From Synechococcales cyanobacterium CNB (GTDB taxonomy: Bacteria; Planctomycetota; Phycisphaerae; Phycisphaerales; UBA1924), in assembly GCA_030263455.1 (NCBI GenBank), contig SZOZ01000002.1:558001-622000 (forward strand): 64,000 nucleotides of DNA. The letters are read 5' to 3'. Under the pieces are notes generated by a model. It had not been told where the DNA came from, made no database searches, and saw only the letters and a list, made by a program, of their open reading frames with translations. The translations under genes and the position numbers were made by a program. Of the stretch, positions 57,971-63,924 are shown piece after piece. Each line of letters opens with the position of its first letter. Position 1 is the stretch's first letter.

Positions 57971-58083
57971 GGCTCGGTCCTCCGTTAACGCGGTCGGCGG
58001 GGGAGTGCGCCGCCGCCGTGCAACTGTAGGCGACGGCGCGGGACGTCCGGCCGGCGAACGACCGGGCGAGGATACGATCGCCG

Positions 58084-58770
58084 ATGGCGGATGCGGGCGA
58101 TGCGGGAGCGATCGGCGGCGCGCCGGCAGCGGCGCGTGCGCCCGTGCGCCGATGGGCGGAACTCGCCGCGATGTTCGTCGCCGGCCCGGCCGCGTACGCC
58201 GTCGCCGATCCCGGGCCGGGGTGGCTCTTCCCCGCGCTGTGGGCGTGGGCGGCGGCGTGTCTGTGGCTGCTGCTGCGCGATCCGACCTTTGACCGACGGC
58301 AGTTGTGGAACGCGCGGAACGCGCTGCGGGTCGGCGGCCGTGTCGTCGCGGTCTTCGTGCCGCTCGGCGCGGGGATCGCCCTGGCGGTCGCCGCGCTGGA
58401 CGAGGACGCGCTCTTCTCGCTCCCGCGACGCAGGCCCGAACTGTGGGCGGCGATCATGCTGCTCTACCCGCTGCTGAGCGTCTACCCGCAGGAGGTCATC
58501 TTCCGCGTCTTCTTCTTCCACCGCTACGGCGCGCTCTTCGGCAGGCAGGGCGTCGTCGTCGTCGCCAGCGCGGCCGCGTTCGGCCTCGCCCACGTCGTCT
58601 TCCACAACTGGATCGCCGTCGCCATGACGTTCATCGGCGGCCTGCTCTTCGCCGCGACCTACACCCGCACCCGATCGGCCTTCGCCGTGTCCGTCGAACA
58701 CGCGCTGTACGGGTGCCTGGTCTTCACGATCGGGCTGGGGCAGTACTTCTACAGCGGACGGGCGGGGTGA
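58084..58770 (+). CDS. CPBP-family intramembrane protease
   Basis: This 228-residue membrane protein has about six helices and the CPBP/Abi motifs in order: YPQEVIFRVFFFHRYG (usual EExxxR, here QExxxR), GLAHVVFHNW and VEHALYGCLVF. Members include prenyl-protein proteases and bacteriocin self-immunity proteins. The loss of the first acidic residue of the EExxxR motif makes catalysis uncertain. The CRISPR array begins about 100 bp beyond its stop on the other side. Confidence 0.85.
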   Translation: MADAGDAGAIGGAPAAARAPVRRWAELAAMFVAGPAAYAVADPGPGWLFPALWAWAAACLWLLLRDPTFDRRQLWNARNALRVGGRVVAVFVPLGAGIALAVAALDEDALFSLPRRRPELWAAIMLLYPLLSVYPQEVIFRVFFFHRYGALFGRQGVVVVASAAAFGLAHVVFHNWIAVAMTFIGGLLFAATYTRTRSAFAVSVEHALYGCLVFTIGLGQYFYSGRAG

Positions 58771-58867
58771 GGCTCGCACCATCGCCGTGGGCAACGGGCG
58801 ACCCGTGCGCCGGGGTGAAGGCTCTCAGTCCATGCCGGTCAGCCATGCCGCGGCGACACGAGGCAAG

Positions 58868-58899
58868 GGTGTAGCCGTGACTTTGCGGTCAGGCGCACC
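58868..58899. repeat. Decayed terminal CRISPR repeat
   Basis: This segment aligns with the repeat consensus from GGTGT through TCAGGCGCACC, with a clean loss of the CTGA that follows GGTGT and five substitutions in the next 27 bases. Twenty-nine bases separate it from the first intact repeat, exactly a spacer length. It marks the trailer end of the array. Confidence 0.8.
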
Positions 58900-58928
58900 G
58901 TTTCAAATGTGGCGAGGTCAAACCGGTG

Positions 58929-59490
58929 GGTGTCTGAAGCCGCGATTCTGGGATCAGGCGCACCTGACCAGGTCGGCGGTTTGTGCGTGTGTTAGGTGTC
59001 TGAAGCCGCGATTCTGGGATCAGGCGCACCGCTCTGTATCAGTGAGCAGACGGACTCTCAGGTGTCTGAAGCCGCGATTCTGGGATCAGGCGCACCGGTG
59101 TACCGGGCTGTCCCCCCGCCCGTGGGGTGTCTGAAGCCGCGATTCTGGGATCAGGCGCACCTCGACATCAACGAGGCGGCGCGCTCGTACAGGTGTCTGA
59201 AGCCGCGATTCTGGGATCAGGCGCACCAGTCGCATGACGACAGCGGCCATCATACGCGGTGTCTGAAGCCGCGATTCTGGGATCAGGCGCACCGCCCAGA
59301 GAAGGAACCCCAATGGCCACCAAGGTGTCTGAAGCCGCGATTCTGGGATCAGGCGCACCTGTCTCGCAGGCCATCCGTCCGAGCTGATGGTGTCTGAAGC
59401 CGCGATTCTGGGATCAGGCGCACCATCGCGGTCAGGCTCATGCGACGCACCACGGGTGTCTGAAGCCGCGATTCTGGGATCAGGCGCACC
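58929..59490 (-). CRISPR. CRISPR array, nine identical 36-nt repeats and eight spacers (plus a ninth next to the decayed repeat)
   Basis: Intact repeats start at 58929, 58995, 59061, 59126, 59192, 59258, 59324, 59389 and 59455. Each is 36 nt, reads GGTGTCTGAAGCCGCG...TCAGGCGCACC on the + strand, and is identical in all nine. Spacers are 29-30 nt and all differ. The ends GGTG/CACC and inner CTGA/TCAG can fold into a hairpin. The decayed repeat lies at the left and the leader promoter at the right, so the array is probably transcribed leftward, giving crRNA repeats that start GGTGCGCCTGATCCC and end CTTCAGACACC. Confidence 0.99.
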
Positions 59491-59560
59491 TGACCTCTCG
59501 TAAACCACGTTCCCGCAAGAACTTGTGTCCGAAACGCCCGTTCCAAACCGGGTTGACGAG

Positions 59561-59662
59561 TGTGCGGATGACCACGGAATCACGACTTTTTGCTTCGTGC
59601 CTTGGGTCCGTCCCGTTGGTCCAATGGTCCGCCGGGCGTGTTCCGGGCATATGACTCGAAGC
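59561..59662 (-). ncRNA. Candidate tracrRNA encoded in the leader
   Basis: Read leftward, the segment begins at the predicted +1 (59662) with GCTTCG, which pairs with CGAAGC at 59597-59592 to close a structured 5' part of about 70 nt. An A-rich linker follows, then a 23-nt segment at 59583-59561 (GTGATTCCGTGG...CCGCACA). Against the first 23 nt of the crRNA repeat that segment forms 16 Watson-Crick and 2 G:U pairs, in helices of 5, 5 and 7 bp. Scaffold then anti-repeat is the order of tracrRNAs in several type V systems. A hairpin CCCG-N8-CGGG at 59552-59537 lies just beyond. Expression is not shown. Confidence 0.55.
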
Positions 59663-59668
59663 AGGGTC

Positions 59669-59697
59669 AGTGTACCAAAATCCGACCGGGCGGTCAA
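59669..59697 (-). promoter_or_regulatory. Leader promoter reading toward the array
   Basis: On the minus strand TTGACC (59697-59692) and TACACT (59674-59669) are separated by exactly 17 bp. The predicted +1 is about 59662. It lies 27 bp past the effector stop and 172 bp before the first repeat, so it could drive the candidate tracrRNA and the array. Confidence 0.6.
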
Positions 59698-59723
59698 CCC
59701 GTTCGTCCGGGGTGGGTCCGGGG

Positions 59724-62171
59724 TCAGGGGCTGCCCGGCTCGGGGGCGGGGAGGGTGATCGCGCCCCAGAAGACGCGGGCGAGGACTCGGGCGGCGTTGG
59801 CGTCGCTGTTCATCTCCTGCTTGCACTTCTCGCAGATGAACGTGCGCTTGGCCTTGTTCTTGTTGAACAGGCCGATGTTCTCCTGCCGCGCACCGCAGGC
59901 TGAACAGACGCGCGAGGAGTTGTGAAAGGGGGCGGTGACAACGCGCATGCCGCGTTCGACGGCCTTCTCGGTGACCTTGGCGCGGACGCGACCGTAGGCG
60001 TGCATGGCGGCGGAGCGCTTCTTGCGCTCTGCCTCGTCGCCGAGTTGGTTGTAGGCCGGGGGTCGCTGGCCGCGCATGCTCTCGAAGACGATGAGATCGC
60101 ACCTGTGCTCCTCAGCGGCGTCGATGACCCGAGCGGCGTTATGCCTGGCCCAGTCGCGGATCATCCAGGCGACGTGACGCTGCAGGCTGCGCTGGTCGTG
60201 AGCGGCGGGTTTCGGGGCCGGCTCACCCTCGCGCCGGCGACGCTCTGCAATCTCGACGGAGCGCTCGGCGAGGCGGGCGAGGTGGCGGGCGAGGTGCTCC
60301 TTGCGCAGGCCGCGGGGGTCTTGCTTGTCGCTGAACTCGAGAGTTGCAGGGCGCTGATTGTGCTTGGGGTCATTCGGGTTGGGAACGAGGGTTGCGGGCG
60401 GGGCGTCGTAGAGTACGTTGATCTTCACGATCCTGAGTGCGACGTCGCGCTCGTGCGTTCGCCCGCGGTAGACGGCGGCGTGCGCGCCCTTCTCGCCCAG
60501 ATCGACGGCGAGAATGCGCATGTCTCGTTCCGGGTCGCCGTTGAAGGTTTCGAGCAGGCGTTGGCGGGCGGCGTCGATGAACTGCTGGTCTTGGGCACGG
60601 CGCGGGAACTTGCGGCTGCGGAGGAGTTGGAGTTCGTCCTGCGAGCAGGAGAAGCGGGAGGGCTTGTGGGGCGCGCCGAAGCGAAAGCCGGCCCGCGGAC
60701 GAGCGCCGACAAAGTGGATGTGGACGCTGGTGATGTTCACCTCGCGTTTCGAGGGCTTGTAGCCGCGCGGCCAGGGGATGAAACCGAACTCGACCCACTC
60801 GCCGCCCGGCGCGCCCTCGAGGCGGAGGCGGACAACGGGCCGGTCGAGGTCGATCTCGTGGAAGCCCTCTCCGAAGACCTTGGGCATGGGCAGGTCGCGG
60901 GCGGAGGGGTAGGCGAAGGTGGGCTTGCGCGGGCCGGCGAGGTAGAAGCGTCGCCACTCGCGATACTCCGATTCGAGCGCGAGGAGGGCGTCGGGGAGTT
61001 GGGCGACGGCTCGCCTGTAGCGGTCGCACAGTTCCGTGTGCGGGTTCCAGAGGCACTCCGATTTCTCGAAGACCTGACCACCGATCCTGCGGCAGTGGGG
61101 GAGGCGGCCGTGCTGGACGACGGTCGTATCGTTCATCCCCATCGCGTTGAGATACGCGATCCAGTTCTTCTTCAATCTCGTCACCGCATGACCGCGCTCC
61201 CGCTCGGGGAGATCGTTGAACAAGACGCGCGGCAGGTTCGGGTTCGAGAACTGCTTCGTGGGTTGGGATATCCGCTGCTCGTGGCAGAAGCGAACGAACT
61301 TCTCCGCATCTTCCCAGAATCGCTTGTCGTTGAAGGCGGTGTTGGCCTGCTTCCTGGCTCTGACGAACTCGGCGTACTTCCAGCAGAGCGGTCCGTGGCC
61401 CTTCTGCCCGTAGCAGCAGTTGTCCACGTTCTGGCGCAGGCGATCCCACGGGCAGATGCGCGGGGCCTTGGCGCGGATGCCCTGTCTCTCGTCGCGCTCC
61501 GGGTCCAGGAGATTGCGAAAGACGCCCGTGAACCGTTCGCGGACTTCGGGCGTGAGGTCGGGGTGATCGCGCTCCCACTCGTCGCGCTCCTGCTCCCACG
61601 CCGCGCGCTGGCGGATCCAGTTCTCGACGCCGCGCTTGTAGCGGGCGACGACCCACTCGGCGGCGGACTTGAGGAGCACGAGGCGGTGGGCGCGGTCGAG
61701 GGTTCGGAGCCGATCGAAGAGGCGCGCGGCCGCGCGGTTGCCCGGATCGCGGTGCGGCCCACGCTCGGCGGCATCGTCCATCGCCCGGCGCAGGTCGTCG
61801 GGGATCGACCGCCCGGCGATCGAGTCCGCCCGCCTGAAGCCCGCAACGTCGTCGAAGACGGAAAGACGCCAGCCGTCACGCTCCTTCTCGTCGGCCTCGA
61901 CACCGGACAGGGCCGGTTCGAGCAGGAAGTCGCCGAGCGTGCCGAAGGATTCTGGGTGCGCTTCGTCGCCCGCGCGCTTGCGCAGGCCCATGATCCACTG
62001 GCAGATTCCCGCGGTGTCGGTATTGAACCGCTCGAAGTGCTCGCGGAGGAGCATCACCTTGCGCCTGTACTCCTCGGGGCTTTCGCCCGACAGCCGACAG
62101 AGCCGGCGAACCAGCGTGCGGGACTCCTTGTAGCGAGTGCGAGTCGGAGTTTCAATGTGTGGCGACGCCAT
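59724..62171 (-). CDS. cas12: Compact Cas12-like type V CRISPR effector
   Basis: This 815-residue protein has a split-in-sequence RuvC nuclease in its C-terminal 265 residues: RuvC-I ILAVDLGEKG with Asp557, RuvC-II DLIVFESMRG with Glu697 and RuvC-III MNSDANAAR with Asp790. The zinc ribbon between II and III uses Cys756, Cys759, Cys780 and Cys783. Residues 1-550 lack a known enzymatic motif and are Arg/Glu-rich helices, as expected for REC and WED domains; a beta-rich stretch (VNITSVHIHFVGARPRAGF) precedes RuvC-I. The length excludes TnpB (about 400) and is below Cas12a/b. GAAGG lies four bases before the ATG. The array is immediately downstream. Subtype V-G or V-L by size, or undescribed. Confidence 0.92.
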   Translation of the reverse strand: MASPHIETPTRTRYKESRTLVRRLCRLSGESPEEYRRKVMLLREHFERFNTDTAGICQWIMGLRKRAGDEAHPESFGTLGDFLLEPALSGVEADEKERDGWRLSVFDDVAGFRRADSIAGRSIPDDLRRAMDDAAERGPHRDPGNRAAARLFDRLRTLDRAHRLVLLKSAAEWVVARYKRGVENWIRQRAAWEQERDEWERDHPDLTPEVRERFTGVFRNLLDPERDERQGIRAKAPRICPWDRLRQNVDNCCYGQKGHGPLCWKYAEFVRARKQANTAFNDKRFWEDAEKFVRFCHEQRISQPTKQFSNPNLPRVLFNDLPERERGHAVTRLKKNWIAYLNAMGMNDTTVVQHGRLPHCRRIGGQVFEKSECLWNPHTELCDRYRRAVAQLPDALLALESEYREWRRFYLAGPRKPTFAYPSARDLPMPKVFGEGFHEIDLDRPVVRLRLEGAPGGEWVEFGFIPWPRGYKPSKREVNITSVHIHFVGARPRAGFRFGAPHKPSRFSCSQDELQLLRSRKFPRRAQDQQFIDAARQRLLETFNGDPERDMRILAVDLGEKGAHAAVYRGRTHERDVALRIVKINVLYDAPPATLVPNPNDPKHNQRPATLEFSDKQDPRGLRKEHLARHLARLAERSVEIAERRRREGEPAPKPAAHDQRSLQRHVAWMIRDWARHNAARVIDAAEEHRCDLIVFESMRGQRPPAYNQLGDEAERKKRSAAMHAYGRVRAKVTEKAVERGMRVVTAPFHNSSRVCSACGARQENIGLFNKNKAKRTFICEKCKQEMNSDANAARVLARVFWGAITLPAPEPGSP

Positions 62172-62268
62172 GCCTTCATTCTAACGACAGGCACCGGTTG
62201 AGAAGACGTTCGCCGGCCCGCCCTATCCTTCCGCCCTTTCGCACCGCCCCCCACGGAGACCCGTCCTC

Positions 62269-63924
62269 ATGCCCGCCGAGCAGCAGTTTGCGACGCTTCC
62301 CGCCGACACGAATCAGGCCCGCGGCCTGGCCGAGTACGCCATCGCCTTCATGTGGGGCGAACCCGGCACGCGCGGCGAGCCGGACGCGGCGGTGCTGGAG
62401 CGCACCAACCTCTTCTTCACCGACGCGTGCCTGTGCGGCATCAGCGCGCTGGCGATGGGGTGCAACGCGCCGAACGTGCTGCGGCGCGAGGCGTTCGAGT
62501 ACGCGGTGCCGGAGGGGCACGCGGGCAGGCCGCTCGGGCGGTGCACGCGGCACGGGGCGACGGTCTTCGGCTCGGCGACGCGGGTGAAGAGCGAGAAGGC
62601 GATCGTCGCCAACTGCGCGGCGGTGCGCGAGTGGGACGCGAACGGGACGAACTTCGGCTACAACCCCGCGCGGGGGCACACGGCCGGCGAGTTCGGGCAC
62701 AACGACTTCTACGCCGTCCCGCTGGCCGCGGCCCAGATGCTCGGGGCGGACGGGGCGACCTCGCTGCGCGGCATGGTCCTGCACGACGAGATCCGCGGGC
62801 GGCTGGCCGAGGTCTTCAGCCTGAAGGACTGCAAGATCGATCACGTGCTGCACGGGGCGATCGCGTCGGCGTGCGTGTTCGGGGCGATGGTGGGGGCGAC
62901 GGCGGAGCAGATCGAGAGCGCGATCGGCATGGTGGTCGCGCACTACGTGCCGTTCCGCGCAATCCGCGCCGGCAAGCAGCTCTCGGACAGCAAGGGCGCA
63001 TCGGCGGCGATCAGCACCGAGGCGGCGATCCTGAGCCTGAAGCGCAGCATGGCCGGGTTCCGGGGGCCGCGGGACATCTTCCGCAACCCGGAGGCGGTCT
63101 TCCGGCTCTTCGAGGGGCCTGGGCAGATGTTCGGCAGGTTGGACAAGAGCGGCGCGCTGGTCGCCGCGCCGAACACCGAGAAGCGCGACGCCTCGCCGTT
63201 CGACCTCGTGCTGGCGCGTGCCGGCGGGGACTTCGCGGTGATGGGGATGCACTTCAAGCTCGCGCTGTACGAGCACCAGTCCGCCGGCGCGGTGCAGGCG
63301 ATCGTGGACCTGATCGCCAGGCACCCCGGGCTGATCGAACGAGCGGACGGCTCGGCCGTCGGGCACATCCGAATCGTGGCGTACGAGCCGGCGTTCGGCA
63401 TCATCGGCGACCCGGCCAAGAAAGACCCGAAGACCCGCCAGAGCGCGGACCACTCGATGGCGTACATCATCGCCACGCTGCTGCGCAAGGCGCTGGAGAA
63501 CCGTGCCGCGGGTCGACCGACGGACTGGAAGGGCCTGATGCTGAACCCGCTGGACTACTCGAAGGACGCGGTGTTCAACCCGCGGACGCGCGAGTTGATG
63601 GCGAGGATCGACTTCGTGCACGGCGGGCCGGAGTACGACCGCCGCTACCCCGACGGCATCCCGACGAGCGTGATCATCACGGACGACAAGGGCGCGCAAC
63701 ACGACTCGGGGCTGGTGATGTACCCGGCCGGGCACGCGCGAAACACGACCGCCGACCTGCGCGGGCTGCTGGAACACAAGTTCGGGCTGATGGCGGCGCT
63801 CGCCACCGACGACCCCACGCAGCTGATCGCTCGCTTCGATGGCCTCGCGGGCAAGAGCGCGAACCAGGTGCAAACGATCAACGACTTCGAGTACGCGGCG
63901 AGGGGGGGGTTCGAGGAGTTCTGA
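62269..63924 (+). CDS. MmgE/PrpD-family protein (2-methylcitrate dehydratase-like)
   Basis: This 551-residue protein has the MmgE/PrpD pattern. The N-terminal helical domain contains FFTDACLCGISALAMG and HNDFYAVPLAAAQM, then LHDEIRGRLAEVF and HVLHGAIASACVFGAMVGAT; the C-terminal half carries SADHSMAYIIATLLRKALE, a hallmark of the family. Members dehydrate 2-methylcitrate or act on related tricarboxylates. No other methylcitrate-cycle gene is in the window. It is divergent from the Cas12-like gene by 97 bp, probably an ordinary chromosomal neighbour. Confidence 0.9.
   Translation: MPAEQQFATLPADTNQARGLAEYAIAFMWGEPGTRGEPDAAVLERTNLFFTDACLCGISALAMGCNAPNVLRREAFEYAVPEGHAGRPLGRCTRHGATVFGSATRVKSEKAIVANCAAVREWDANGTNFGYNPARGHTAGEFGHNDFYAVPLAAAQMLGADGATSLRGMVLHDEIRGRLAEVFSLKDCKIDHVLHGAIASACVFGAMVGATAEQIESAIGMVVAHYVPFRAIRAGKQLSDSKGASAAISTEAAILSLKRSMAGFRGPRDIFRNPEAVFRLFEGPGQMFGRLDKSGALVAAPNTEKRDASPFDLVLARAGGDFAVMGMHFKLALYEHQSAGAVQAIVDLIARHPGLIERADGSAVGHIRIVAYEPAFGIIGDPAKKDPKTRQSADHSMAYIIATLLRKALENRAAGRPTDWKGLMLNPLDYSKDAVFNPRTRELMARIDFVHGGPEYDRRYPDGIPTSVIITDDKGAQHDSGLVMYPAGHARNTTADLRGLLEHKFGLMAALATDDPTQLIARFDGLAGKSANQVQTINDFEYAARGGFEEF

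What the first reader, a model, noticed from the sequence alone, without database searches (positions are those of the whole stretch)
59561..59662. Hidden tracrRNA candidate in the leader: closing stem at +1 plus an anti-repeat
Seen on the minus strand: a promoter with 17-bp spacing; at its +1, GCTTCG pairs with CGAAGC 60 bases on; then a 23-nt segment matches the repeat in anti-sense at 16 positions, or 18 of 23 pairs with G:U. Promoter, structured 5' part, A-rich linker, anti-repeat and array follow in order. This is the expected tracrRNA layout and would make the guide dual-RNA. It is short and imperfect, so simple repeat searches could miss it.
Basis: partly seen in the sequence, partly recalled or inferred. 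Interest (0 to 1): 0.85.

Follow-up and report, generated by a model that had tools for sequence, protein, structure and literature searches.

The report
Guide-partner RNA of a Cas12g system

Summary
The gene beside the array (59724-62171, minus) encodes Cas12g, the type V-G effector. Published work says Cas12g is guided by crRNA plus a tracrRNA, encoded between cas12g and array (PMC10511118, PMC10707612; passages and parts). In the window alone the anti-repeat is only suggestive: 17 of 23 Watson-Crick matches occur in 1 of 1000 shuffles, but duplex energy is unremarkable.

Comparison decides it. In all 11 distinct Cas12g loci found, a promoter-like site, a stem domain and the array follow cas12g. 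As a set the anti-repeats fit their own repeats (0 of 20000 permutations; 9 of 11 loci by score, L005 and L016 weak). In 8 alignable loci 11 of 22 stem pairs change on both sides. RNA models built without the window find only 59557-59662 in it.

It is a new member of a known kind. Open: no promoter-like site lies between tracrRNA and array in any of the 11 loci, and the leader is conserved although no Cas1 was found in this genome.

The parts
59724..62171 (-). cas12g, 815 aa, effector nuclease; residues aligned with D513, E655 and D745 of the solved Cas12g are D557, E697 and D790 (that D513/E655/D745 are catalytic is recalled)
   Evidence: PADLOC Cas12g 1010.9 bits; PDB 6xmf, 8i16, 8i3q at E 1.5e-187 to 2.1e-186; residues counted by hand on the alignment
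59669..59697 (-). promoter-like site before the tracrRNA: TTGACC, 17 nt, TACACT
   Evidence: in 11 of 11 loci the best site of the 100 nt before the stem has 8-12 of 12 matches and ends 6-9 nt before the stem
59592..59662 (-). tracrRNA 5' stem domain: closing stem GCTTCG/CGAAGC (59657-59662 with 59592-59597), two further helices and the asymmetric loop AGUCAUAU
   Evidence: fold z -2.1; 11 of 22 pairs with changes on both sides, 93.8% of 176 cells paired in 8 loci (RNAalifold)
59653..59655 (-). GUC, probable second anti-repeat (R:AR duplex 2), complementary to GAC at -6 to -4 of the repeat
   Evidence: complement present in the first 26 nt of 11 of 11 stem domains; L005 has GUG facing CAC; published change of C(-98)/U(-99)/G(-100) in duplex 2 abolishes cleavage (PMC10511118)
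59587..59591 (-). A-rich linker
   Evidence: sequence
59562..59584 (-). anti-repeat 1: 17 Watson-Crick + 2 G:U of 23 with the array repeat
   Evidence: co-fold with the repeat
59491..59561 (-). array leader with TTT (-57 to -55), AAG (-34 to -32) and TT (-13, -12) counted from the first repeat, positions conserved in most relatives
58929..59490 (-). CRISPR array: 9 identical 36-nt repeats, spacers of 29-30 nt
58864..58899 (-). degenerate terminal repeat

Best explanation
59662 to about 59557 on the minus strand is the tracrRNA gene of a type V-G CRISPR system. It is transcribed from the promoter at 59697-59669. Its 5' domain folds into a closed, interrupted hairpin that Cas12g should recognise. 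Its 3' segment pairs with the 5' part of the crRNA repeat (R:AR duplex 1), and GUC in the asymmetric loop pairs with GAC near the 3' end of the repeat (R:AR duplex 2). The duplex is probably trimmed by a host RNase such as RNase III, and the two RNAs then load Cas12g for RNA-guided RNA cleavage. Shown here by sequence comparison: identity of the effector, the conserved stem structure, the anti-repeat that changes with the repeat, the conserved promoter-like site. Inferred: transcription, identity of the GUC contact with duplex 2, processing by RNase III, and RNA cleavage (reported for two other Cas12g enzymes).
For: Cas12g identity. Stem domain, array and promoter-like site in 11 of 11 distinct loci. 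Own-repeat preference of the anti-repeats: Smith-Waterman total 365 against a maximum of 323 in 20000 permutations; own repeat best in 9 of 11 by this score, 9 of 11 by duplex energy, 8 of 11 by matches in 20 nt. 22 of 36 register columns, each paired in at least 6 loci, have a change on both sides (no shuffle control for this count). Stem domain in 8 loci: 11 of 22 pairs with changes on both sides, 0 of 500 shuffles as high on any of five measures. A model from the 10 other loci finds only 59557-59662 in the window (88.4 bits) and in the genome; one from 9, without the nearest relative, finds only the same place in the window (81.9 bits). In 392 phylum genomes the model finds 3, the three with a match over most of Cas12g, two of which were in the model. 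RNase III is present in the genome.
Against: No expression data. In the window the duplex energy with the repeat is no better than for shuffled leaders (79 of 300). By duplex energy the window's anti-repeat fits two relatives' repeats slightly better than its own (rank 3), and by matches in 20 nt one (rank 2). L005 and L016 pair at only 18 and 19 of 31 register positions, hardly above the mean of 17.0 with other loci's repeats, and rank 3 and 2 by Smith-Waterman, though L005 is rank 1 by energy. The permutations treat the loci as independent, and some are related. Single-sequence folds of L003 and L017 keep the closing stem but not the interior, and that of L018 the interior but not the closing stem. 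The structure counted was written by eye from these sequences, which favours its share of paired cells. L004, L005 and L006 were left out of that count.
Confidence: 0.95

Rival explanations
1. The stretch is only the array's leader and promoter; the anti-repeat match is chance and the effector uses crRNA alone, as Cas12a, Cas12h or Cas12i do (recalled; the table in PMC7889808 lists no tracrRNA for Cas12h and Cas12i).
For: Taken alone, 25 of 400 shuffled leaders reach 18 pairs of 23 and 79 of 300 reach the duplex energy.
Against: The effector is Cas12g; as a set the anti-repeats follow their own diverged repeats (0 of 20000 permutations); the stem covaries.
Confidence: 0.02
2. The RNA is a scoutRNA-like helper, as in types V-C and V-D, whose key contact is a few bases rather than a long anti-repeat.
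For: A 3-nt complement, GUC to GAC or GUG to CAC, is present in 11 of 11 loci, and published changes in duplex 2 abolish Cas12g activity. In L005 and L016 the long anti-repeat is weak.
Against: In the other 9 of 11 loci 21-26 of 31 register positions pair with the own repeat, against a mean of 17.0 with the others; scoutRNAs lack a long anti-repeat (recalled).
Confidence: 0.02
3. tracrRNA and pre-crRNA are a single transcript from the promoter at 59697-59669, rather than two separately promoted RNAs; the anti-repeat first folds onto repeat 1 in cis.
For: With one and the same rule, the 100 nt before the stem hold a site of 8-12 of 12 matches ending 6-9 nt before it in 11 of 11 loci, while the stretch between stem and array holds nothing above 7 of 12 in 11 of 11, no better than shuffles (stricter rule). 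In the minimum-energy fold from stem to first repeat, 10 of 11 loci pair anti-repeat with repeat 1.
Against: Only sigma-70-type sites were sought; a T-run near -57 could end the transcript in several loci; L003 shows no cis pairing; no RNA data. It refines the main reading and does not exclude it.
Confidence: 0.45

Closest known systems
Type V-G (Cas12g) of hot-spring metagenomes: Cas12g1 (PDB 6xmf, 6xmg, 8i16, 8i3q) and the Karmadon Cas12g (PMC10707612)
   Same: Effector family; tracrRNA between cas12g and the array; 36-nt repeat with 30-nt spacers (PMC10707612, parts 1-2); tracrRNA of two stem regions plus two anti-repeats (PMC10511118, passages)
   Different: Planctomycetota host (inferred); its own repeat and anti-repeat; effector of 815 aa instead of 767-768. 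The letters of the published tracrRNAs were not seen, so no direct sequence comparison was made.
   Same: Effector, then a GC-rich stretch with a 9-nt inverse match to the repeat-like unit, then two copies of that unit's start 66 nt apart at the contig end
   Different: Effector matches the Cas12b models over most of its length and Cas12g only at the C-terminus; whether it has a tracrRNA was not tested
scoutRNA of types V-C and V-D (table in PMC7889808; details recalled)
   Same: A short contact between helper RNA and crRNA
   Different: Here an extended anti-repeat is present as well, clearly in 9 of 11 loci

Membership tests
Type V-G CRISPR system | Effector of the Cas12g family over its whole length | tested here: met
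   PADLOC PDLC01702 1010.9 bits over 10-809 of 815; 6xmf over 3-810
Type V-G CRISPR system | Residues aligned with D513, E655 and D745 of Cas12g1 conserved (their catalytic role is recalled) | tested here: met
   D557, E697, D790 by hand count on the alignment
Type V-G CRISPR system | CRISPR array and tracrRNA region downstream of cas12g | tested here: met
   same order in 11 of 11 loci
Type V-G CRISPR system | RNA-guided RNA cleavage | not testable with these tools
   needs protein and RNA
Cas12g tracrRNA | Structured 5' domain conserved among Cas12g loci | tested here: met
   three single-sequence folds depart in part
Cas12g tracrRNA | Anti-repeat complementary to the locus's own repeat (R:AR duplex 1) | tested here: met
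   energy alone was not significant in the window, and L005 and L016 are weak
Cas12g tracrRNA | Short second anti-repeat (R:AR duplex 2) | tested here: met
   GUC facing GAC in 10 of 11 loci, GUG facing CAC in 1; that this is the published duplex is inferred from the mutated letters C, U, G
Cas12g tracrRNA | Transcribed and bound by Cas12g | not testable with these tools
   no RNA data
Any Rfam 15 family | Match to one of 4227 models | tested here: not met
   no match up to E 1 in 58000-63000

The most novel reading that the evidence does not exclude
In type V-G the tracrRNA and the crRNA precursor are one transcript from a single promoter placed at, and in some loci overlapping, the end of cas12g. 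The anti-repeat first closes on repeat 1 in cis, and the T-rich leader element at about 57 nt before the array tunes how much of the RNA stops as tracrRNA and how much reads on into the array. The fixed leader would then be kept for RNA production rather than for spacer capture, which fits its persistence in a genome in which no Cas1 was found.
Probability: 0.3. Interest if true: 0.45.

Novelty: new member of a known kind. Interest (0 to 1): 0.3.

Why it matters
It supplies a co-varying description of the type V-G guide from 11 loci, next to the two Cas12g systems whose guides are described in the papers I opened. That shows which bases are kept in nature when a Cas12g guide is to be shortened or redesigned, and it yields a covariance model that finds the RNA on its own. 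No Rfam family matched the stretch. For the field it confirms expectation rather than overturning it.

Tried and rejected
Duplex energy as proof: rejected, since shuffled leaders reach the window's energy in 79 of 300 cases. An intrinsic terminator behind the tracrRNA: the T-run near -57 has no consistent hairpin before it, and the only terminator-like site found in 59400-59800 lies on the promoter. A first promoter comparison used different rules before the stem and behind it; it was repeated with one rule, in which L020's site before the stem is not clearly better than shuffles (P 0.107).

Protospacers: the array against phages gave nothing at E 0.01; exact pieces of spacers 8, 3, 1 and 5 (4 of 9) gave nothing in viral contigs; no match of 22 or more bases elsewhere in the window. 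One search used a leader piece by mistake and says nothing about spacers. Adaptation in trans: no Cas1 found in this genome; present in 6 of 11 Cas12g genomes. Of 8 Cas1 places, 6 regions from 5 genomes were fetched; 3 of 6 held arrays, none with a Cas12g-like repeat by eye. Cas12g in plasmids: no match; in viral contigs: none by a search that finds close relatives only. Matches L007-L011 were left out of the Cas12g set because they cover only 72 to 172 of 815 residues; L007 proved Cas12b-like. Left out as duplicates: L001 and L015 (the window), L013, L014, L019, L021 (leaders identical to L003, L002, L004, L005). A notebook entry of mine gives the leader's TTT as 11 of 11; the counted value is 9 of 10 per position, L002 left out.

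Papers: PMC10511118 passages found by terms; PMC10707612 parts 1-2 of 5 and passages; PMC12669027 and PMC7889808 passages; all others only as search listings.

Full report
What the locus is. The window holds a gene on the minus strand, 59724-62171, that encodes an 815-aa protein. PADLOC's two Cas12g models match it at 1010.9 and 934.7 bits, the first over residues 10-809, and the solved Cas12g chains 6xmf, 8i16 and 8i3q match at 1.5e-187 to 2.1e-186. The residues aligned with D513, E655 and D745 of the solved protein are D557, E697 and D790, counted by hand; that these three are the catalytic residues is recalled. Nine identical 36-nt repeats with 29-30-nt spacers lie at 58929-59490, with a degenerate repeat at 58864-58899. 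The neighbours are an Rce1-like (CAAX) protease and a thiolase on one side and an MmgE/PrpD-like gene on the other. This is the organisation described for a type V-G locus: array downstream of cas12g, 36-nt repeats, 30-nt spacers, tracrRNA between gene and array (PMC10707612). The host is taken to be Planctomycetota because genome G576, of the window's genus, carries the same leader as L002, whose record is titled Planctomycetota bacterium.

The observation. The promoter TTGACC-17-TACACT is the only sigma-70-type match in 59400-59800. The stem GCTTCG/CGAAGC closes a 71-nt domain that folds at -25.5 kcal/mol, z -2.1, 10 of 200 shuffles as good. The best 23-nt anti-repeat is 59584-59562, with 17 Watson-Crick matches and 2 G:U. 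Against shuffles of the leader, 17 matches occur in 1 of 1000 and 16 or more in 14 of 1000. With G:U allowed, 18 pairs occur in 25 of 400, and the best duplex energy in 79 of 300. So in one sequence the match is suggestive, not proof.

Relatives. Cas12g was sought in genome contigs (3 loci), in 392 genomes of the phylum (8 matches, the window's included, 3 of them over most of the protein), in 298 of the class (6), in 301 of the order (5), and in smaller groups of 27, 4 and 17 genomes (2, 1 and 1); these sets overlap. After removing copies of the window and identical leaders, 11 distinct loci remain: the window, L002, L003, L004, L005, L006, L012, L016, L017, L018 and L020. All 11 have, in order behind cas12g, a promoter-like site, a closed stem domain and the array. 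In 10 of 11 the best 23-mer anti-repeat of the leader begins within a few bases of the stem's end; in L005 the best 23-mer lies elsewhere and the pairing behind the stem is split.

The anti-repeat follows the repeat. When each locus's 42 nt behind the stem is scored against all 11 repeats, own pairs total 365 against a mean of 252 and a maximum of 323 in 20000 permutations. By duplex energy the total is 368.3 against a maximum of 334.2, and by matches in 20 nt it is 161 against 153. Own repeat is best in 9, 9 and 8 of 11 loci by the three scores. The exceptions are L005 and L016 (Smith-Waterman), the window and L016 (energy), and the window, L005 and L016 (matches). The permutations treat loci as independent, although some, such as the window and L002, are close. 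In a fixed register, 18-26 of 31 positions pair with the own repeat against a mean of 17.0 with the others; the register was chosen for the own repeat, which favours it, and L005 (18) and L016 (19) hardly exceed that mean. 22 of 36 columns, each paired in at least 6 loci, show a change on both sides (this count has no shuffle control).

The stem domain is conserved as a structure. On 8 alignable loci (window, L002, L003, L012, L016, L017, L018, L020; L004, L005 and L006 left out because their 5' parts are longer), 93.8% of 176 cells pair and 11 of 22 pairs have changes on both sides, with 0 of 500 shuffles reaching any of the five measures; sliding the partners by 1-3 columns drops pairing to 27-47%. 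The structure was written by eye from these sequences, but RNAalifold on its own predicts nearly the same one. The three loci left out also have a closing stem, of 5-8 pairs, L005 and L006 with other letters. Single-sequence folds of L003 and L017 keep the closing stem but not the interior, and that of L018 keeps the interior but not the closing stem.

Prediction test. A covariance model from the other 10 loci finds one place in the window, 59557-59662 minus, at 88.4 bits, and the same single place in the 3.2-Mb genome. A second model without the nearest relative L002 finds the same place, and no other, in the window at 81.9 bits. G031 and G208 supplied training sequences, so only the window's is an independent hit.

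[quoted passage not shown] The window's RNA carries GUC at 59655-59653, in the asymmetric loop, complementary to GAC at -6 to -4 of its repeat. The complement is present in the first 26 nt of all 11 stem domains. In L005 the repeat has CAC and the RNA GUG, a matched change. That this is the same contact is inferred from letters and position; a 3-nt match alone is not rare. The co-fold of the window's RNA and repeat leaves both triplets free while forming the stem domain and duplex 1.

How it probably works. The RNA is transcribed from the promoter that begins 26 nt behind the cas12g stop. In L003, L004, L005, L012 and L018 the stop codon itself lies inside the -35 box. It folds into the hairpin domain for Cas12g and pairs with the repeat through duplex 1 and duplex 2. 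Cas12g was reported not to process its precursor (PMC10511118), and the genome has an RNase III, which probably trims the duplex; that step is inferred. RNA-guided RNA cleavage is carried over from the studied Cas12g enzymes.

Open points. With one rule for both stretches, the 100 nt before the stem hold a promoter-like site of 8-12 of 12 matches, ending 6-9 nt before the stem, in 11 of 11 loci (10 of 11 at P 0.03 or less against shuffles, L020 at 0.107). The stretch between stem and array holds nothing above 7 of 12 in 11 of 11, never better than shuffles. So tracrRNA and array may be one transcript; sigma factors of other kinds were not tested. In the minimum-energy fold from stem to first repeat, 10 of 11 loci pair anti-repeat with repeat 1; L003 does not. 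The last 62 nt before the array are conserved at fixed distances from the first repeat (score 21.1 against a maximum of 15.8 in 2000 random shifts, 10 loci with L002 left out): each T of -57 to -55 in 9 of 10, each A of -34 and -33 in 9 of 10, T at -13 in 9 and at -12 in 10 of 10. Relatedness inflates this score to an unknown degree. The distance from stem to array is 100-101 nt in 8 of 11 loci. No Cas1 was found in this genome, and Cas1 was found in 6 of 11 Cas12g genomes.

Verdict. The finding is correct and its interpretation is supported, but the system is a member of a described subtype for which a tracrRNA is expected. In the open-paper library, searches for Cas12g with tracrRNA (30 of 38 papers listed), with Planctomycet, adaptation module and covariance model, and for type V-G with tracrRNA listed no paper that I could recognise by title or abstract start as a comparative RNA model of this family; only four papers were opened, in part. 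Interest is modest.

Noticed in passing
window 59491-59552 and the leaders of the other Cas12g loci: The leader keeps TTT, AAG and TT at fixed distances from the first repeat in most Cas12g loci, and stem-to-array length is 100-101 nt in 8 of 11, although no Cas1 was found in this genome.
   Followed up: partly
L003, L004, L005, L012, L018, end of cas12g: The TGA stop codon of cas12g lies inside the -35 box (TTGAC) of the tracrRNA promoter-like site.
   Followed up: partly
L007 115-2586: A small Cas12b-like effector (687 aa, PADLOC Cas12b 491.6 bits) is followed by a GC-rich stretch that contains CCGAGAATG, inverse to CATTCTCGG of a repeat-like unit, and then by two starts of that unit 66 nt apart at the contig end: possibly the same layout in another subtype.
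   Followed up: partly
L013 / L003, N-terminal part of cas12g: The Cas12g match in L013 runs across one in-frame TGA; the open frame after it is 762 aa long.
   Followed up: no
L016 4159-5349: The array has an 8-nt spacer and a unit that recurs at about 132-nt steps, unusual for a CRISPR array.
   Followed up: no
L004 7546-7637: The predicted fold of the stem domain carries an extra hairpin behind GAGUC, so this part of the tracrRNA seems to tolerate insertions.
   Followed up: no
L038 9450-9684: The genome of the nearest relative (G576) has a second array with 65-66-nt period near a Cas1 gene, with an unrelated repeat.
   Followed up: no
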